Origin: Campylobacterota bacterium
Lineage (GTDB): Bacteria; Campylobacterota; Campylobacteria; Campylobacterales; Sulfurimonadaceae
Length of the DNA stretch: 46,391 bases
Reading direction: 5' to 3'
NCBI GenBank assembly: GCA_023379705.1
Contig: JAMCPS010000042.1
Location: 1-46,391 of the forward strand
Position numbers and translations under genes: made by a program. The notes below the pieces were generated by a model. The model was not told the origin of the DNA. It saw only the letters and a list, made by a program, of their open reading frames with translations, and did not search any database. Below are positions 1 to 14,501 of the stretch, piece after piece (the stretch's first letter is position 1; each line of letters opens with the position of its first letter).

Positions 1-1
1 T

Positions 2-931
2 GCGGCCACATTTGCCCTTTTTATCATAATAGCCCTGATCACCGCTTTTAAGATTTCCAAAAAAGCGCAGTACGATATCGCACAAATCACCCACTATCTT
101 CACGAGATTTCGGCTAAAAATTACATGGCAGTTTTAAAACCTCAACATTTTAGAGAATTTTTACAAATCACTCTGCTTCTCAAAAATCTCGTGAAAAAGC
201 TCCGCAACCGCGACAAACAAAAACGCAAATATACCGCACGTTTGCGTCTTATCAACAAACAGCAAAACGATATTCTTTCCGCCATCAGCCACGAATTCAA
301 AAATCCCATTGCAGCCATCGTCGGATATACCGAAACGCTCGAAGAAGATCCAAACCTAAACCTCGCAATACGAGAGAAATTTTTAGGAAAAATTCATTCT
401 AACGCTTTGAAGATCAGCCATATGCTGGACCGTCTCGCGCTCTCCGTAAAACTCGAAAACAATGATCTCTCCATAAAAAGCACGACGTTTGATCTGGATC
501 TCTTGTGCCGTGATGTGACCTCCTCCCTTCAGGGGAAGTACCCTCATCGTGTGATTAGCTATGAGGGCTCATCCAAAGAAGTGTATGCCGATAAAACCAT
601 GATTGACCTCGTCATCACCAATCTCATCGACAACGCCATCAAATACTCCGAAGATCCCGTGACCCTAAGATTAAGTGAACATGCTGTCGAAATCATCGAT
701 AAAGGGATAGGTATTGCCCCCAACGAACTGGAACTCATTACCTCCAAATTTTACCGTGTTCAAAAAAACAGCTGGGACAATTCTATGGGATTGGGACTGG
801 CCATTGTCAGCTATGTCCTTAAGCTGCACCATTCACACCTCAACATTAGCAGTACTCTTGGTGTGGGTTCCACCTTCTCTTTTTCAATCGATGCGTTTCA
901 CTCAGCGCCAATGGCACATCATCACCCATGA
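2..931 (+). CDS. Sensor histidine kinase, 5' end cut off by the window
   Basis: The reading frame is open from base 2, so the gene starts upstream; the first Met codon inside the window (125) is not the true start. The first visible codons encode a hydrophobic membrane segment (about 15 residues), then a helical linker. Counting from the Met at 125, a HisKA domain has the phospho-acceptor His56 in SHEFKNP, and the HATPase domain shows the N-box NLIDNAIKYS (166-175), DKGIGI (192-197) and GLGLAI (222-227). It should autophosphorylate and pass phosphate to a response regulator that is not in the window. Its stop overlaps the cca start by 4 bp (ATGA), and pstCAB follow, so a PhoR/PhosS-like phosphate sensor is an attractive guess. 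The input domain is not visible and this cannot be confirmed. Confidence 0.88.
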   Translation, partial: AATFALFIIIALITAFKISKKAQYDIAQITHYLHEISAKNYMAVLKPQHFREFLQITLLLKNLVKKLRNRDKQKRKYTARLRLINKQQNDILSAISHEFKNPIAAIVGYTETLEEDPNLNLAIREKFLGKIHSNALKISHMLDRLALSVKLENNDLSIKSTTFDLDLLCRDVTSSLQGKYPHRVISYEGSSKEVYADKTMIDLVITNLIDNAIKYSEDPVTLRLSEHAVEIIDKGIGIAPNELELITSKFYRVQKNSWDNSMGLGLAIVSYVLKLHHSHLNISSTLGVGSTFSFSIDAFHSAPMAHHHP

Positions 932-2353: not shown

Positions 2354-3202
2354 ATGATCGATAAAATATTTTTCAACTTCACACGCTTTAGTGCATTGCT
2401 GATTCTGATAATTGTGGCATGGATTTTTACCGTTTTATTCAACCACTCCCTAGAAGCCATGAACACCTTTGGTCTGGATTTCATAACCAAAGACGAGTGG
2501 GCCCCAAACCTTGATAAGTTCGGTGCTTACGCCGCTATTTTAGGATCCATTATTTCCACCTTTTTGGCTATGTTACTGGCGGTTCCTATTGCCATTGGGG
2601 TCGCCGTCTTTTTAAGTGAAATTGCCCATGATAAAATCAAAGGATTTTTTGGGGTAAGCGTCGAGCTTCTAGCCGCGATCCCTTCTGTTATCTACGGGAT
2701 GTGGGGACTGTTCTTTTTCGTCCCGATCATCCGTGATATTTTTGGAGGTTTGGGAATCGGTCTTCTTGCCGCAGGAATCGTTTTGGCAATCATGATCTTG
2801 CCGTTTATGGCAGCCGTTACCCGAGATGCGATGAACACGACTCCCGATATTCTCAAAGAGTCCGCCTACGCACTGGGCGGCACGCAATGGGACGTTATCA
2901 AAGACATTATCATCCCTTACGCCAAAGCAGGTATTATCGGTTCGCTCATCCTCGCACTTGGACGTGCAATCGGCGAGACGATGGCCGTTACCTTCGTTAT
3001 GGGTAACGTTCACCACGTGCCAAAGTCGATTCTCGATCCGACCACTTCCATTCCTGTAACATTAGCAAACGAGTTTAGCGAAGCCGATTCTTCTTTGTAT
3101 TTCTCAAGTCTTTTCGGTCTTGCTTTAACCTTGCTTATCATGAGTTTTGTGGTTATCGCCGTTGCAAAATTTTACTTTTTACGTAAAGCTAGGAGAGCAT
3201 AA
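2354..3202 (+). CDS. pstC: Phosphate ABC transporter permease PstC
   Basis: One of the two inner-membrane channel subunits of the high-affinity phosphate importer. The 282-residue protein has about six hydrophobic segments and the binding-protein-dependent permease loop (near 175-210, with ALGGTQWDVI and GRAIGETMAV) that contacts PstB. The start has an AAGG ribosome site six bases upstream (2344-2347). It lies 46 bp after cca and shares one base with pstA (TAATG). It is assigned PstC rather than PstA by gene order and by the N-terminal GLDFITKDEWAP-like periplasmic segment. No pstS precedes it, which is unusual; the binding protein must be encoded elsewhere. Confidence 0.93.
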   Translation: MIDKIFFNFTRFSALLILIIVAWIFTVLFNHSLEAMNTFGLDFITKDEWAPNLDKFGAYAAILGSIISTFLAMLLAVPIAIGVAVFLSEIAHDKIKGFFGVSVELLAAIPSVIYGMWGLFFFVPIIRDIFGGLGIGLLAAGIVLAIMILPFMAAVTRDAMNTTPDILKESAYALGGTQWDVIKDIIIPYAKAGIIGSLILALGRAIGETMAVTFVMGNVHHVPKSILDPTTSIPVTLANEFSEADSSLYFSSLFGLALTLLIMSFVVIAVAKFYFLRKARRA

Positions 3203-4047
3203 TGACCGCTGTACAAAAACGCGTCTTTATCAACAAAGTAGCCCTCACCCTCTCAACACTTAGCGCCCTAATCGCTTTGGGCTTTTTGTTTTGGATTTTA
3301 GGCGTTTTGGTGATGAAGGGAATCAGCGCCCTTAACTGGAATATTTTTCTCTTCGATGGAGCCCCTCCCGGAAATCCTGAGAGTGGTCTTAAACACGCAC
3401 TGGTAGGTCAGGCAATTTTGATTGGTATGGCAACAGCAATCGGTGTCCCTTTGGGTATTTTGGCGGGAACTTATCTCAGCGAATACGGTAAAAACTCCAA
3501 ACTCGCGCACACCATTCGTGATATCAGCGATATTATGATGTCTGCACCCTCAATCGTTATTGGCGCCTTCGTTTATGCTGTCGTTGTTATGCCTATGGGA
3601 CACTTTAGTGCCTGGGCAGGTGCCATTGCCCTTGGGATTATCATGATTCCCGTCATCTTGCGCACTACCGACGATATGTTACAGCTTGTCCCCGGAGAAC
3701 TGCGTGAAGCAGCATTTGCACTGGGCGCCCCAAAGTACAAAGTGATTCTGAGCGTTGTTTATCGCGGAGCCAAAGCCGGTATTTTAACGGGTGTGTTACT
3801 GGGAATCGCTCGCGTAGGAGGGGAGACAGCACCATTGTTGTTTACTTCGTTTAACGATAACTTTTTCACGACTGATCTCAATGAAGCGATGCCATCATTG
3901 ACCGTGACAATCTTTAACTACGCAACCAGTCCCTATGAAGATTGGCAACAGCTGGGATGGGCAGCTGCTTTTATCCTCTCAATGTTTATTTTAGGTCTCA
4001 ACATATTAGGGCGATTAATTCTACTCGCTGGAAAGAAAAGGAAATAA
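3202..4047 (+). CDS. pstA: Phosphate ABC transporter permease PstA
   Basis: Second membrane subunit of the Pst phosphate importer. It has 281 residues, a long N-terminal hydrophobic helix (about 10-35), further membrane spans, and the permease coupling loop with ELREAAFALGAPKYKVI and ARVGGETAPLLFT (about 170-215), typical of PstA. The ATG is preceded by a strong AGGAGAG site (3191-3197) inside the pstC end, and stop and start share one base. pstB follows after 3 bp, so pstCAB is one transcription unit. Confidence 0.94.
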   Translation: MTAVQKRVFINKVALTLSTLSALIALGFLFWILGVLVMKGISALNWNIFLFDGAPPGNPESGLKHALVGQAILIGMATAIGVPLGILAGTYLSEYGKNSKLAHTIRDISDIMMSAPSIVIGAFVYAVVVMPMGHFSAWAGAIALGIIMIPVILRTTDDMLQLVPGELREAAFALGAPKYKVILSVVYRGAKAGILTGVLLGIARVGGETAPLLFTSFNDNFFTTDLNEAMPSLTVTIFNYATSPYEDWQQLGWAAAFILSMFILGLNILGRLILLAGKKRK

Positions 4048-4050
4048 CTC

Positions 4051-4836
4051 ATGGCAAGCATCATTGATATCAAAGAAGCGTGTGCATTGCACGTACGAGA
4101 TTTTGAATTTACCTACAAAGGTGCAGAATCTCCAAGCTTGAAAAAAATAACCATGCCTATCGCTAAGAACTCTATTACGGCACTTATTGGTCCATCTGGA
4201 TGCGGTAAAACCACTTTATTACGCGCGTTTAATCGTATGCACGATTTGTACCCAGGTAACAGTTACGCAGGTGAAATTGAGTTTGAAGGGCGCAATATTT
4301 TGGGACCGAAAGAGGATTTGATTCACTTGCGTACCAAAATCGGGATGATCTTTCAAAAACCGACCGCGTTTCCAATGTCCATCTTTGACAATGTTGCCTA
4401 CGGAATGCGTTTGCAAGGGATTAAAAACAAAACAGAGCTCAACGACCGCGTTGAAAAAGCCCTCAAAGATGCCGCAATCTGGAAAGAGGTCGGTGATCGT
4501 CTCAAACACGACGCAAACGGTTTATCAGGCGGACAGCAGCAGCGTTTATGTATTGCTCGCGCTATCGCCGTAGAACCAGAAGTATTGCTATTTGATGAGC
4601 CAACCTCTGCGCTTGACCCTATCTCTACTCAGGGGATTGAGCGCCTTGTCATCGAGCTCAAAGAGCGCGTAAGTATCATCATCGTAACGCACAACATGCA
4701 GCAAGCAGCGCGCGTGAGCGACTACACAGGGTTTATGTATCTCGGAGAGCTTATAGAGCTTGGAGAAACAGAGAAACTCTTTGTCACTCCTAAAGAAAAA
4801 TTAACACAGGAATACATCACCGGTAAATTCGGGTGA
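4051..4836 (+). CDS. pstB: Phosphate ABC transporter ATP-binding protein PstB
   Basis: ATPase that drives phosphate import through PstC/PstA at the cytoplasmic face. All ABC motifs are intact in 261 residues: Walker [10 protein letters not shown] (47-55), Q-loop [10 protein letters not shown] (about 101-110), signature LSGGQQQR (158-165), Walker B LLFDEP (179-184) and the switch His in IIVTHNMQQ. The [12 protein letters not shown]-loop is characteristic of PstB. An AAAGGAAA ribosome site lies in the pstA end. The gene ends 6 bp from the convergent queF stop, with no phoU after it, although PhoU is a common negative regulator in pst operons. Confidence 0.95.
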
Positions 4837-10147: not shown

Positions 10148-10341
10148 AACGAATTTCCTTTTTAATTTATATCTTAAAGAGTTAGTAGTTAGTAATAAGG
10201 GGGTGTGAATGTGTGAATAAACACATATTCCCTCTCACAGCTGGGATGAACAGGCGTGATCAAAAGGGTTAGTTTCATTCACATCTATTCACTTGAACTA
10301 AAGAATTATAGCTTTTTTAAATCACCTTTACAATGAGATCT
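10148..10341. promoter_or_regulatory. dnaA-dnaN intergenic region with four DnaA-box-like sites (origin part 1)
   Basis: Four 9-mers with the TTCAC core reported for Campylobacterota DnaA boxes are present. Two adjacent sites read GTGAA on the plus strand (10203-10211 and 10211-10219, overlapping by one base). Two sites lie on the opposite strand (10275-10283 TCATTCACA and 10286-10294 TATTCACTT). They form two facing pairs about 55 bp apart. A minus-strand TATAAT (10310-10305) could be a dnaN promoter, so DnaA binding may also regulate dnaN. The box calls rest on similarity to the TTCAC core and were not scored. Confidence 0.65.
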
Positions 10342-11673
10342 TTATTCTGAAGTCATTGTTGATATTTTATTGGAAAGTTCATCTATTTTTACTTTGAAAT
10401 CTTCATCATTTTTTAGGAGTTCATTGATTTTTTTCATGGTGTGACTAACGGCGGTATGATCTTTCATTCCAAAGTATTGTGCAAGCTGCGGCATCGAATT
10501 GGGTGTTAGATTACGCGAAAGATAAATGGCAATTCTGCGCGCATAAACGATATTGCTGTTACGGCTTTTTGAACGAATTTCACTTGTTTTTACGTTGAGT
10601 TCTTTGGAAACAATTTCCATAATGAGATCGGTTGTAATGTTGTTTCGTTTTTCAGCCATTTGTTCTTTGAGGACATTACGTGCAAATTCTATATTGACAT
10701 CAACTCCCATAAGCTGGGAATAGGCATTGAGTTTTGAGAGGATTCCCTCGATTTCTCTTGTGTTGTTTTCGATGATGGTTGCGACATAATTAATCACTTC
10801 TTTATCCAATTTGACGCGATTGATTTCACATTTTTTCTTGATAATTTCAATTTTTGTTTCAAGTTCAGGAGGTTGTATATCGGCAACCAAACCCCATTCA
10901 AAACGGCTTTTGAGACGTTCTTCGAGACCTGCTATTTTTTTAGGGTGTTTATCGGATGTGATAATGATTTGCTTATTTTCATTGCGAAGAGCTTCAAAGG
11001 TATGAAAAAATTCTTCTTGTATTTGATTTTTATTGCTTAAAAATTGAATATCGTCTATAAGGAGCAAATCACACTTACGGTATTTATCTTTGAATCTGTC
11101 CATGGTACGGTTGCTAAGATGACGGCTAAAGTCGTTAAGAAATTGTTCCACCGAGGTATAAATAACGGTTTTACCCTGCGCCAGCATTACATTTCCTACT
11201 GCTTGCATCAGATGTGTTTTTCCTAAACCGACTCCGCCGTAAATAAAGAGAGGATTATAAACAATACCCGGTTTTTCGCTTACACTTTTTGCTGCTACAT
11301 ACGCAAAATTGTTAGAACCGCCTACAACAAAGTTTTGAAATGTATAGGAAGGATTTAGTAGGGCAACAGGTGTTTTATCGCTGTGTGTTTGTATGGCGGG
11401 AGAAGAATGTTGAGTCGAGGGCGTATTTTGAGATTTGACGAGAATTGATACCGAGGGCTTTACTCCGGTTTTGATTTCAAACAGGTGAGATATTTTATCT
11501 GCATATTTAGTTCGTATCCAATTGGCAATCAAGAGATTTGGTGCATTAAATACTGCCAAATTACTTTTAGATTCTTCTTCATTAAAAGATAGCTGTTTTA
11601 TGTAACGTGTGTAATCAATTTCATTTATCTCATTTTTGAGCATTTGGATGACCATACTGCCGATATTGTTCAT
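10342..11673 (-). CDS. dnaA: Chromosomal replication initiator DnaA
   Basis: AAA+ protein that binds DnaA boxes and melts the origin. The 443 residues show an N-terminal oligomerisation domain, a variable linker (about 85-105), and Walker A GGVGLGKT (146-153). Walker B lies in LLLIDDIQF (203-211), and the C-terminal helix-turn-helix has the DnaA signature DHTAVSH (405-411). The ATG follows a GGAGAAAAA ribosome site. The upstream 108 bp shared with ruvC carries three DnaA-box-like sites and a candidate TATTAT -10, consistent with autoregulation. Transcription runs away from ruvC towards dnaN and gyrB. Confidence 0.98.
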   Translation of the reverse strand: MNNIGSMVIQMLKNEINEIDYTRYIKQLSFNEEESKSNLAVFNAPNLLIANWIRTKYADKISHLFEIKTGVKPSVSILVKSQNTPSTQHSSPAIQTHSDKTPVALLNPSYTFQNFVVGGSNNFAYVAAKSVSEKPGIVYNPLFIYGGVGLGKTHLMQAVGNVMLAQGKTVIYTSVEQFLNDFSRHLSNRTMDRFKDKYRKCDLLLIDDIQFLSNKNQIQEEFFHTFEALRNENKQIIITSDKHPKKIAGLEERLKSRFEWGLVADIQPPELETKIEIIKKKCEINRVKLDKEVINYVATIIENNTREIEGILSKLNAYSQLMGVDVNIEFARNVLKEQMAEKRNNITTDLIMEIVSKELNVKTSEIRSKSRNSNIVYARRIAIYLSRNLTPNSMPQLAQYFGMKDHTAVSHTMKKINELLKNDEDFKVKIDELSNKISTMTSE

Positions 11674-11781
11674 TTTTTCTCCAACTATGTGAATAGTAAT
11701 GGTAATAATACACTTTTTTCCCTATAATTGGGGATATGTTTGATGTGAATAAGTTTTTTTACATATGTGAATGGAGAATGA
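11674..11781. promoter_or_regulatory. Divergent dnaA/ruvC promoter region with three DnaA-box-like sites
   Basis: Three 9-mers with a TTCAC core on the minus strand lie at 11687-11695 (TATTCACAT), 11743-11751 (TATTCACAT) and 11765-11773 (CATTCACAT). A plus-strand TATAAT (11723-11728) is a candidate -10 for ruvC. A minus-strand TATTAT near 11705-11710 is a candidate -10 for dnaA. The last box overlaps the ruvC ribosome site. DnaA binding here would plausibly repress dnaA and ruvC and may nucleate the initiation complex. Confidence 0.65.
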
Positions 11782-12276
11782 ATGCTGATTTTAGGAATTG
11801 ATCCCGGTACGAGAAACTGTGGATACGCACTTATTTCATTGGATGGGCAAAAAATGAAATTAGTTGAAGCGGGGCTTGTAAAGATAAAAAGCGAAGGGCT
11901 TCAATATCAAATTCCACAAATTGCTGAAGCGATAGAGCAATTGTTTGCAGCGCATAAAATTGATGAAGTAGCCATGGAAGATATTTTCTATGCGCATAAT
12001 CCAAAAACGGTTTTAAAGTTGGCACAATTCCGGGGAGCCATTATGTTAAAACTTTTGCAAGAGCATGGTGAATTTTCTGAATATACGGCACTGCAAGTTA
12101 AAAAAGCACTCACAGGGAAAGCAAAAGCGGCTAAAGAGCAGGTTGCGTTTATGGTAAAACAAATATTAGGCATAACAAAAGAGATAAAACCGATGGATAT
12201 TACAGATGCTATGGCGGTTGCAATAACTCATGCACAAAGGGTTAAGTTGGAGAAAGGGAAGCAAAAACTCATATAA
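11782..12276 (+). CDS. ruvC: Holliday junction resolvase RuvC
   Basis: Endonuclease that cuts four-way recombination junctions with RuvAB. The 164 residues contain the complete acidic tetrad: Asp7 (LGIDPGT), Glu66 (VAMED), Asp139 and Asp142 ([13 protein letters not shown]). The ATG at 11782 follows a GGAGAA site. It is divergent from dnaA with DnaA-box-like sites between, the ruvC-dnaA-dnaN arrangement known from several Campylobacterota origins. A 7-bp inverted repeat overlaps its stop codon. Confidence 0.95.
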
Positions 12277-12302
12277 GCGGCTAACACACCAGGAGAGCCG
12301 CT
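12276..12302. repeat. Inverted repeat overlapping the ruvC stop
   Basis: AGCGGCT (12276-12282) and AGCCGCT (12296-12302) are perfectly complementary with a 13-nt loop. No T-run follows on either strand, so it is a weak candidate for a terminator. The 9-mer TAAGCGGCT that begins it recurs at 12631-12639 in the same intergenic region. Confidence 0.45.
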
Positions 12303-12660
12303 AAGTCGGAAGTGTATCTGTACTCTCCTTATAATTAATCCACATTTGTTTCATGAGTATTTTTTTTAAGTCTTTTGAAATTCACAGCTAAAAAAAATAT
12401 TAAATGGTAAAAAAAGTTCTTATTTTTTTTAAAATGTGTAGTATTCACACTGTGAGCGGAATGTGAATAAATGTTTACAAAATATACTTATTATTCCGAT
12501 AACTTTTACCTATTTCAGAAATAATTTATCTAAATTCTACCTAAAAGTCGTTTTTGGAATCTTTCTAGAAACCCCTTAAAATAGGGGTTCCTAGAAGAAT
12601 AAAAAGAAATAACAGCACTTCAGTATTCTTTAAGCGGCTGTTAGAAAAAGTTATTCACAT
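12277..12660. other. Candidate origin part downstream of ruvC: AT-rich tract with four DnaA-box-like sites
   Basis: This is most of the only long non-coding stretch in the window. Very AT-rich sequence occupies about 12350-12440 and could be the DNA unwinding element. TTCAC-core sites lie at 12378-12386 (AAATTCACA), 12442-12450 (TATTCACAC), 12461-12469 (inverted, rc TATTCACAT) and 12652-12660 (TATTCACAT). The middle two form a perfect inverted 8-mer pair (12442-12449, 12462-12469) with a 12-nt spacer. A long hairpin follows at 12563-12596. No open reading frame of credible size is present. Which cluster opens in vivo cannot be told from sequence. Confidence 0.55.
12563..12596. repeat. Long hairpin in the origin-proximal gap
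   Basis: Fourteen paired positions with one A-C mismatch (12563-12576 against 12583-12596) enclose a 6-nt AT loop, with a GC core CCCCT/AGGGG. No T-tract follows on either strand, so it is not an obvious terminator; it may be a structural or protein-binding element of the origin. Confidence 0.6.
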
Positions 12661-12677
12661 TTTAAGTACATATTCTT

Positions 12678-12716
12678 TGTAATGAACATGTAATAATGAT
12701 GTAACAAAACTGAAAT
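12678..12716 (+). promoter_or_regulatory. Pho-box-like array of four 11-bp-spaced direct repeats
   Basis: TGTAAT (12678-12683), TGTAAT (12689-12694), TGTAAC (12700-12705) and TGAAAT (12711-12716) recur at exactly 11-bp intervals with AT-rich 5-nt spacers. PhoB-family boxes have the same architecture, and the units differ from the E. coli TGTCAT/C half-site by one base. A TATCTA candidate -10 at 12737-12742 lies about 20 bp downstream. That spacing would let a PhoB-like activator replace a -35 element for the downstream acyltransferase gene. The repeat pattern is seen directly; the regulator is inferred. Confidence 0.5.
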
Positions 12717-12764
12717 AAACACGATTTACCATGTCGTATCTAGATGCAATTAAAGGTAAATGTT

Positions 12765-14501
12765 ATGGTAAGTGTTGAAACAATTTTAAAAAAAGAACAT
12801 CCCGAATTATTTACCTACCCTGATTTAATTTCTAAAATGGTTGTTGGACTCACACGGTTTGTTATACATGAGAATTCCATTAACCATTTTATGGACGGCC
12901 ATAAGAATAAAAATGGATTGAATTTTATCGATGCCGTTTTACAACATTTGAATGTTTCCTATAAAGTTATTCATAGAGAGATTGAAAACATACCGGCTAT
13001 AGGGAAAGTCATTGTTGTTGCGAATCATCCATTGGGTGCTTTGGACGCTTTATCGTTGATACAAATGGTTTGCAGTGTGCGGCAGGATAAAAAAGTAAAA
13101 ATTGTTGCCAATAAAATGCTTGGATCCATTGAGCAACTCAGTGAGTTTATTATCGGTGTGGATAATTTTAATGACAGACTGTCGCGAGATTCACTACGCA
13201 AGATTGATCAAGCGCTCCAAAGTGAAGAGGTTGTTATTTTCTTTCCCAGCGGTGAAGTATCTCGTGCCGGGTTGTTGGGTCAAAAAGAGGCAAAATGGAA
13301 AGGCGGCTTTGTTAAATTCGCTAAAAGAAACAATGCTCCAATCGTGCCGATTTTTATAAAAGCAAGAAACAGTTCCCTTTTTTATGCGGCATCGTGGATT
13401 TATAAACCGCTGGGGACACTTTTATTAGGGCATGAGATATTTGCAGCACGCAATCAAATCTTCGACTTTAGAGTGGGAGAAATGATTAATTCTAAAGTTC
13501 TCAATGATACCTCTATGGATGATGGTCATCATGCGCGACTTTTTCGCAAACATCTTATGCGCCTTTCAAAGGGGAAGAAAGGAATATACCCGACAGAATG
13601 TTCCATTGGACACCCTGTATCGCGTCAGGAGATACGCCAGGAATTAAAGAGGGGTGAACGTATTGGTGAGACAAGCGACAATAAGCAAATCTATTTAATA
13701 GAGTACGATAAGGCTCCAAATTTGATTAACGAAATAGGTCGATTGCGCGAGTATTCATTTCGTAAAGTAGGCGAAGGAAGCGGTAAGACGAGAGACATTG
13801 ATGAATACGATCGTTATTATCACCATTTGCTGTTGTGGGATGATGATGCATTAGAGGTTGTGGGAGCGTATCGAATAGGTGAATGCGGATGGATACTCTC
13901 ATGGCTTGGAAAGGAGGGGTTGTACCTTAACGACTTGTGTACCATGAGCAATGCCTTTGATCCAATTTTAGAGGATGCCATAGAACTGGGACGAAGTTTT
14001 GTTCAGCCTAAATATTGGGGAAGCAGAGCGCTGGATTATCTATGGCAGGGGATCGGAGCGTATTTGGCACATAATCCTCACATCAAATACATGATTGGAC
14101 CTGTCAGCATCTCTGGAAGCTATCCTAAGCATGCACAAGAGGCACTCGTGTATTTTTATACTCTTTACTTTGGTTGCGATCGACAGTATCTCAGAGCACG
14201 CTCTGCTTTTCATTTATCCGATCATGTCAATGCAGAGTTTGCAGAGATCTTTTTAGGAGTTGATTATGAACAAGACTTTAGAGTTTTGAAAGATTATCTT
14301 AAAACTTTTGACGTCGCAGTTCCTATGTTGTATAAACAATACAGTGAATTATGTGAAGCAGGCGGAGCGCAGTTTATAGATTTTGGTATAGACGTTGAGT
14401 TTAATAACTGTGTTGACGGTTATATTATGGTTGAGATAAATCGTATCAAAGAAATAAAACGAAAGCGCTATATCAAAGAGGTGGTTTCAAATCCTCTTTG
14501 A
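12765..14501 (+). CDS. Bifunctional acyltransferase resembling ornithine lipid synthase OlsF
   Basis: The 578-residue protein fuses a PlsC-like glycerolipid acyltransferase domain to a C-terminal GNAT/OlsB-like N-acyltransferase domain. The first shows NHPLGALDA with the catalytic His88 and Asp94, and FFPSGEVSR as the block III equivalent. The second, from about 300, shows RLREYSFRKVGEG, DIDEYDRYYHHLLLWD and GAYRIG. This architecture matches OlsF, which acylates ornithine twice to make phosphorus-free ornithine lipids; COG3176 hemolysin-like annotation is the generic alternative. I chose ATG 12765 because AAAGG (12752-12756) lies at good spacing. The first in-frame ATG (12744) has no ribosome site and would fall at or before the predicted transcription start. 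Its end overlaps the convergent rluA-like gene by 29 bp. Confidence 0.78.
   Translation: MVSVETILKKEHPELFTYPDLISKMVVGLTRFVIHENSINHFMDGHKNKNGLNFIDAVLQHLNVSYKVIHREIENIPAIGKVIVVANHPLGALDALSLIQMVCSVRQDKKVKIVANKMLGSIEQLSEFIIGVDNFNDRLSRDSLRKIDQALQSEEVVIFFPSGEVSRAGLLGQKEAKWKGGFVKFAKRNNAPIVPIFIKARNSSLFYAASWIYKPLGTLLLGHEIFAARNQIFDFRVGEMINSKVLNDTSMDDGHHARLFRKHLMRLSKGKKGIYPTECSIGHPVSRQEIRQELKRGERIGETSDNKQIYLIEYDKAPNLINEIGRLREYSFRKVGEGSGKTRDIDEYDRYYHHLLLWDDDALEVVGAYRIGECGWILSWLGKEGLYLNDLCTMSNAFDPILEDAIELGRSFVQPKYWGSRALDYLWQGIGAYLAHNPHIKYMIGPVSISGSYPKHAQEALVYFYTLYFGCDRQYLRARSAFHLSDHVNAEFAEIFLGVDYEQDFRVLKDYLKTFDVAVPMLYKQYSELCEAGGAQFIDFGIDVEFNNCVDGYIMVEINRIKEIKRKRYIKEVVSNPL

What the first reader, a model, noticed from the sequence alone, without database searches (positions are those of the whole stretch)
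12678..12765. Pho-box-like array in front of a putative phosphorus-free lipid synthase
Seen: TGTAAT, TGTAAT, TGTAAC and TGAAAT spaced by exactly 11 bp, ending about 20 bp before a TATCTA -10 candidate, with a good ribosome site at the resulting start. Known: PhoB/PhoP-type regulators bind direct repeats of 11-bp period; the E. coli half-site is TGTCAT/C and the C. jejuni PhosR box also repeats every 11 bp. Ornithine lipids replace phospholipids during phosphate starvation in several bacteria. Inference: this gene is part of a phosphate-starvation regulon with the pst operon in the same window, placing a lipid-remodelling switch next to the chromosome origin.
Basis: partly seen in the sequence, partly recalled or inferred. 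Interest (0 to 1): 0.7.

Follow-up and report, generated by a model that had tools for sequence, protein, structure and literature searches.

The report
Phosphate switch before ornithine-lipid gene
A row of 11-base repeats that this bacterial genus also places before its phosphate-uptake genes stands before the gene for a phosphorus-free membrane lipid, right beside the chromosome's replication origin, so phosphate hunger very probably turns that gene on.

Summary
Four half-sites (TGTAAT, TGTAAT, TGTAAC, TGAAAT) repeat every 11 bp at 12678-12716; 0.02 such matches are expected in the window. The gene is olsF (NCBIfam equivalog, 743.9 bits, cut-off 620), probably starting at 12765. The genus is Sulfuricurvum.

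In 41 genomes of the genus the three-unit pattern occurs 95 times (reversed control: 5): 38 before olsF, 14 before pstC, 38 before a PHO4-family permease, 5 elsewhere, one of these before a PhoX-family gene. 38 of 39 genomes with olsF have it there. A motif learned de novo from pstS, phoU and pstC promoters, without olsF, ranks the olsF array first to third in the window. The likely -10 is TACCAT (12727), not TATCTA.

olsF follows ruvC in 29 of 30 loci tested (the other ends at a contig edge), beside dnaA and the origin. In 33 of 39 rows an inverted DnaA-box pair lies upstream with tightly kept spacing.

PhoB-controlled olsF is known in Vibrio, so this is a new member of a known kind; the DnaA-box/Pho-array module is the novel lead. 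Nothing was tested at the bench.

The parts
12678..12716 (+). Four-unit Pho-box array, 11-bp period (half-sites 12678-12683, 12689-12694, 12700-12705, 12711-12716)
12727..12732 (+). Likely -10 element TACCAT (TAnnnT fixed in 38 of 38 aligned promoters, 10 nt after unit 4)
   Evidence: function inferred
12752..12756 (+). AAAGG, likely ribosome-binding site
   Evidence: Sequence; inferred
12765..14501 (+). olsF, bifunctional ornithine lipid synthase (578 aa from ATG 12765; the mechanical ORF starts at 12744)
   Evidence: NF052615, 743.9 bits, cut-off 620; PF13444 and PF19576
12651..12659 (+). Proximal DnaA-box-like TTATTCACA
   Evidence: box consensus from PMC5043019; binding not tested
12462..12470 (-). 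Distal DnaA-box-like TTATTCACA, inverted to the proximal one
   Evidence: binding not tested
11782..12276 (+). ruvC, directly upstream of olsF
10342..11673 (-). dnaA
2292..2308 (+). Two-unit Pho box AGTAAT-N5-TGTAAT before pstC, followed after 11 nt by TACAAT 2320-2325
2354..4836 (+). pstC (2354-3202), pstA (3202-4047), pstB (4051-4836)
   Evidence: TIGR02138, TIGR00974, TIGR00972 over cut-off
1..931 (+). 3' part of a PhoR/PhosS-like histidine kinase, cut by the contig edge; relatives have phoB just upstream of it

Best explanation
The array is a four-half-site Pho box that controls olsF. When phosphate is scarce, the PhoR/PhosS-like kinase phosphorylates the PhoB/PhosR-like regulator encoded beside the pst genes. 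Regulator molecules bind head to tail on the 11-bp repeats, and the last unit, 10 nt before the TACCAT -10, takes the place of a -35 and recruits RNA polymerase. OlsF is then made and ornithine lipid replaces part of the phospholipid, sparing phosphorus. Shown by computation: the array, its conservation and 11-bp footprint, its sharing with pst, permease and (once) phoX promoters, the family of the gene, the two-component genes beside pst in relatives. Inferred: binding by that regulator, induction by low phosphate, the lipid made.
For: 90 of 95 exact three-unit matches in 41 genus genomes lie within 300 bp upstream of olsF, pstC or a PHO4-family permease, against 5 matches of the reversed control. 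38 of 39 olsF loci have it. The fourth unit, not used for selection, is conserved at 0.95-1.00 while spacers average 0.51. De novo motif from 41 pstS/phoU/pstC stretches without olsF puts the olsF array first (3 of 6 motif versions), second (2) or third (1) in the window. Matrix from 55 distinct Pho sites: 34 of 39 genus olsF promoters beat all 200 shuffles. Relatives carry pstS divergent from phoU-phoB-phoR-cca-pstCAB. OlsF model match. Outside the genus 15 of 27 promoters score with at most 3 of 200 shuffles as good.
Against: No binding or expression data. G026 (L096/L199) has olsF without the array. The exact three-unit form is missing at 25 of 39 pstC loci (own included) and in 9 of 29 permease genomes; many pstC loci have two units. 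12 of 27 outside-genus promoters show no site within 150 bp. Window sites 34855 and 33534 score close to the olsF units without being before an evident phosphate gene. The PhoB-like regulator and its kinase score below the PhoB/PhoR equivalog cut-offs (196.6 of 296.2; 144.2 of 334.2). The own phoB DNA-binding half is lost in an assembly gap. The PWM sites were picked with a pattern inspired by olsF; the EM inputs are related sequences.
Confidence: 0.88

Rival explanations
1. The array is the operator of another OmpR-family regulator (for example an envelope or redox sensor) whose targets include phosphate genes and olsF.
For: The own genome has 17 matches to the OmpR-type DNA-binding domain, 16 over cut-off; binding was not tested.
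Against: The genus-wide targets are almost only phosphate genes, and the PhoB-like gene sits among them in relatives.
Confidence: 0.07
2. The repeats are a DnaA or origin element (for example part of an unwinding region) and not a transcription operator.
For: The array lies 18 bp after a DnaA-box-like site in an AT-rich stretch by dnaA.
Against: The same repeats stand before pstC, pstS, phoU, permease and phoX genes, several of them far from the origin; two genus rows with the array have no DnaA-box-like site near it (L098; L047 ends at a contig edge).
Confidence: 0.03
3. Chance repeats in AT-rich DNA.
For: The region is AT-rich (GC 0.338 at 11001-13000).
Against: 0.02 expected; kept in 38 of 39 orthologous loci while spacers vary.
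Confidence: 0.01

Closest known systems
PhoB-dependent olsF (VC0489) of Vibrio cholerae
   Same: OlsF synthase induced by low phosphate through PhoBR (PMC12186959, passages)
   Different: Other phylum; half-site TGTAAY here; olsF beside the replication origin; response not yet measured here
PhosS/PhosR regulon of Campylobacter jejuni
   Same: Same phylum; phosphate two-component system controlling pst and phoX genes (PMC3197622 and PMC4415409, passages)
   Different: Its box sequence was not seen in any call (only recalled as an 11-bp repeat), so the motifs were not compared; no olsF link is stated in the passages seen
E. coli PhoB Pho box
   Same: Head-to-tail 11-nt direct repeat units (PMC4415409, passages)
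   Different: Half-site CTGTCAT in E. coli, TGTAAY here; recognition helix DRTVDVHIRRLR against DRTVNVAINRLK
Bipartite origin of Epsilonproteobacteria (oriC1 ruvC-dnaA, oriC2 dnaA-dnaN)
   Same: Same gene order and TTCAC-core boxes (PMC5043019, passages)
   Different: Here a further inverted box pair lies beyond ruvC, next to the olsF promoter; no DnaA binding shown

Membership tests
Pho box (PhoB/PhosR-type operator) | Direct repeats at 11-bp period | tested here: met
Pho box (PhoB/PhosR-type operator) | Same motif before pst and other phosphate genes of the genome and its relatives | tested here: met
Pho box (PhoB/PhosR-type operator) | Fixed short distance from the last unit to the -10 | tested here: met
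   10 nt in 38 of 38 aligned olsF promoters; 11 nt at own pstC. That E. coli has a like distance is recalled
Pho box (PhoB/PhosR-type operator) | Binding of the phosphorylated regulator and response to phosphate | not testable with these tools
   Needs bench work
E. coli-type Pho box | TGTCAT/C half-site | tested here: not met
   TGTAAY here; it works like a Pho box with another half-site
OlsF bifunctional ornithine lipid synthase | Score over the curated equivalog cut-off, both acyltransferase domains | tested here: met
   NF052615 743.9 against 620 over 570 of 570 positions; PF13444 and PF19576
OlsF bifunctional ornithine lipid synthase | Makes ornithine lipid | not testable with these tools
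   Needs lipid analysis
PhoB | NCBIfam PhoB equivalog cut-off (TIGR02154) | tested here: not met
   Relative's protein scores 196.6, cut-off 296.2, though it is the best-scoring model; gene order supports the role. Called PhoB-like only
Epsilonproteobacterial oriC | TTCAC-core DnaA boxes clustered around ruvC-dnaA-dnaN | tested here: met
   All four TTATTCACA of the window lie at 10212-12659
Epsilonproteobacterial oriC | DnaA binding and unwinding | not testable with these tools
   Needs in vitro assays

The most novel reading that the evidence does not exclude
The Pho array and the inverted DnaA boxes form one composite element of the Sulfuricurvum origin. From the distal DnaA box to the Pho array the distance is 217-221 bp in the 33 of 39 genus rows that could be measured, while the proximal DnaA box takes one of two positions about one helical turn apart (189/190 + 28-30 or 179/180 + 39-41), so changes on its two sides offset each other. 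This would fit a looped complex of DnaA and the phosphate regulator that lets phosphate status act on replication initiation, or lets DnaA gate ornithine-lipid synthesis.
Probability: 0.2. Interest if true: 0.8.

Novelty: new member of a known kind. Interest (0 to 1): 0.52.

Why it matters
It gives a concrete, genus-wide Pho motif for Sulfuricurvum (TGTAAY followed 11 bp later by a second GTAAY/GTTAY unit) and turns lipid remodelling under phosphate hunger in these sulfur oxidisers into a direct prediction. Ornithine lipids have been measured in the related Sulfurimonas, there in connection with the electron acceptor (PMC9789136, passages). If the origin module is real, a nutrient-sensing operator and initiator sites share one conserved piece of DNA, which would make a link between phosphate status and replication testable.

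Tried and rejected
Chance repeat: rejected. Of the four 2-mismatch sites elsewhere in the own genome (C14, C26, C83, C91), C26 lies by a response-regulator gene and C83 by a peptidase-M1 gene, with no phosphate gene seen among the proteins scanned; C14 and C91 were fetched but not annotated. The regulator at the end of contig C178 was suspected to be phoB and rejected: no pst gene is seen beside it, and C98 opens with the same C-terminal residues. TATCTA as -10: rejected, as it is not conserved and would leave only a few nt before AAAGG (inference). Rfam matches at 12536-12662, 12559-12600 and 12201-12314 are below gathering scores and of eukaryotic families: taken as chance. The generic promoter scan found 3 promoter-like sites in 12270-12800 (2.2 expected), none at the olsF start, which does not speak against an activator-dependent promoter. 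A RuvC comparison on short outside-genus loci had no control and is not used. The matrix came from sites picked with a pattern inspired by olsF and includes the window's own pstC site; one search is the less circular check. No claim is made on the 3 of 30 outside-genus olsF matches whose upstream DNA I did not fetch (G078:C22, G087, G069).

Full report
What is there. At 12678-12716 four half-sites repeat every 11 bp. TGWAAY x4 with up to 3 mismatches finds this array and its own one-unit shift, nothing else in the window; 100 dinucleotide shuffles average 0.02 matches. In the own genome (2,296,632 bases, 183 contigs, 99.9% complete, 7.89% contamination) the three-unit pattern has a single exact match, this one. 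The closest named relatives (94-95% protein identity) are Sulfuricurvum MAGs, so I take the window to be from that genus.

The gene. window:12744-14501 matches the OlsF equivalog model NF052615 over 570 of 570 positions with 743.9 bits (cut-off 620). Close relatives begin MVSVETIL, so the start is probably ATG 12765, with AAAGG at 12752-12756.

Genus-wide test. Of 100 genomes searched (own included; 41 of the genus, 59 others) 67 have an OlsF match: 39 of the 41 and 28 of the 59. GTAAY-N6-GTAAY-N6-GTAAY occurs 95 times in the 41 genus genomes, and at least once in each; the pattern read backwards occurs 5 times. Placing the 95 against gene positions gives olsF 38 (38 genomes), pstC 14 (14 genomes), PHO4-family permease 38 (20 genomes; overlapping matches counted apart), unassigned 5. 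By a rough estimate the stretches within 300 bp upstream of these genes are 0.00018 of what was searched. Of the five, G011 precedes a PhoX-family gene (84.1 bits, cut-off 24); G001:C14 stops 73 bases from a contig end; two overlapping matches in G004 and one in G022 have no phosphate gene that I could see (no family search was run there). Misses: 1 of 39 olsF loci (G026), 25 of 39 pstC loci, the own one included (many have two good units), 9 of 29 permease genomes. The own genome has no PHO4-family permease.

Footprint. In 38 promoters (37 distinct) aligned on the array the three GTAA cores are fixed because the pattern selected them; the fourth unit, not selected, is GAAA at 1.00, 0.95, 1.00, 1.00. 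Spacers average 0.51 and the 5' flank 0.50. TAnnnT is fixed (1.00 at T, A, T) 10 nt after the fourth unit. At own pstC the gap from the second unit to TACAAT is 11 nt.

Motif from other genes. A matrix from 62 sites (55 distinct 22-mers) of pstC, phoU, pstS and permease promoters, the window's own pstC included and olsF left out, ranks in the window 2292 (18.5), 12689 (15.2), 12700 (14.8), 34855 (12.2), 12678 (11.5), 33534 (11.1). Of 39 genus olsF promoters 34 beat all 200 shuffles; L038 and L045 all but 1, L032 all but 4, L098 all but 6, L096 (G026) fails with 33. Of 27 outside-genus promoters (of 30 matches), 15 have at most 3 of 200 shuffles as good and 12 have 21 or more. An EM motif search on 41 pstS, phoU and pstC upstream stretches, without olsF, gives TGTAATCat.ttGTtAt; over the six motif versions printed the olsF array ranks first three times, second twice and third once in the window. 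The six are shifted versions of one motif and the stretches are related, so they are not six independent tests.

The regulator. Four neighbourhoods laid out (L129-L132) show pstS divergent from phoU-phoB-like genes, with kinase, cca and pstCAB following where the stretch reaches; family matches were run on L132. The PhoB-like protein's best NCBIfam model is PhoB, but at 196.6 bits it is under the cut-off of 296.2, and the kinase is under the PhoR cut-off as well. The own genome has pstS, phoU and the first 119 residues of this regulator (79% identical to the relative) at the end of contig C123; the window's contig opens inside the kinase. The DNA-binding half is therefore in an assembly gap. 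Own pstS and phoU have their own two-unit sites. The helix DRTVNVAINRLK is the same in 7 of 7 full-length proteins read and differs from E. coli DRTVDVHIRRLR; that this explains TGTAAY in place of TGTCAT is inference.

The origin. ruvC lies directly upstream of olsF in 29 of 30 genus loci tested, 467-591 bp away; L047 ends at a contig edge. All four TTATTCACA of the window lie at 10212, 11744, 12462 and 12651 (0.74 expected; no shuffle of 100 reached four). PMC5043019 (passages) places oriC1 between ruvC and dnaA and oriC2 between dnaA and dnaN, with a TTCAC core, and reports a third predicted region in S. denitrificans without DnaA binding (its place was not seen). The 12462/12651 pair is a cluster beyond ruvC. 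In 33 of 39 genus rows where all could be measured the distal box to array distance is 217-221 bp (sd 1.2), though the proximal box takes two positions 10-11 bp apart. Not measurable: L032, L047, L095, L096, L098, L101. In two outside-genus loci, with a looser array pattern, the distances are 182+41 (L102) and 180+51 (L103), so the total is less strict there. ruvC to distal box and array to start (61-89 bp) vary more. Shared ancestry inflates such agreement, and other conserved blocks between the boxes may hold the length, so this is a lead, not a result.

Known or new. OlsF under PhoB is reported for V. cholerae (PMC12186959, passages). In the held library Sulfuricurvum with ornithine lipid gave 0 papers, Sulfurimonas with OlsF 0, Campylobacterota with ornithine lipid 1, on Sulfurimonas lipids. 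PhoB with oriC, DnaA, phosphate starvation and replication initiation gave 2; the Caulobacter paper (abstract and passages) reports a replication block under phosphate starvation through DnaA translation. The library lacks most subscription papers, so these are not proof of novelty. I file the finding as a new member of a known kind, with an unusual location.

Noticed in passing
12462-12659: Inverted pair of TTATTCACA sites beyond ruvC with conserved spacing to the Pho array; proximal box in two positions one helical turn apart across the genus.
   Followed up: partly
12511-12600: Conserved blocks and a small stem (ACCCC...GGGGT) between the two DnaA-box-like sites; no Rfam family above its gathering score.
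   Followed up: no
L096 / L199 (G026, labelled Sulfuricurvum kujiense UBA12443): olsF matches only from residue 22 and lacks the array and the proximal DnaA-box-like site, while ruvC is in place: a deletion or an assembly fault.
   Followed up: partly
L086 around 3612-3649 (G004:C49:14611-14648): Four-unit GTAAY array between a gene that looks by eye like a ModE-type regulator and a small ORF; no phosphate gene seen, no family search run.
   Followed up: no
L087:3514-5902 (G011): Three-unit array before a PhoX-family gene, a likely further Pho target.
   Followed up: yes
L182:3143-4588 and L132:6710-8131: A protein of about 475 residues with a signal-like start, next to pstS in own and related genomes; no Pfam or NCBIfam match for the L132 copy. 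By place it could be a phosphate porin.
   Followed up: partly
L116, L118, L122, L124, L125 (outside the genus): Best three-unit matches 225-266 bp before olsF rather than within 150 bp; a longer leader or another gene between was not examined.
   Followed up: no
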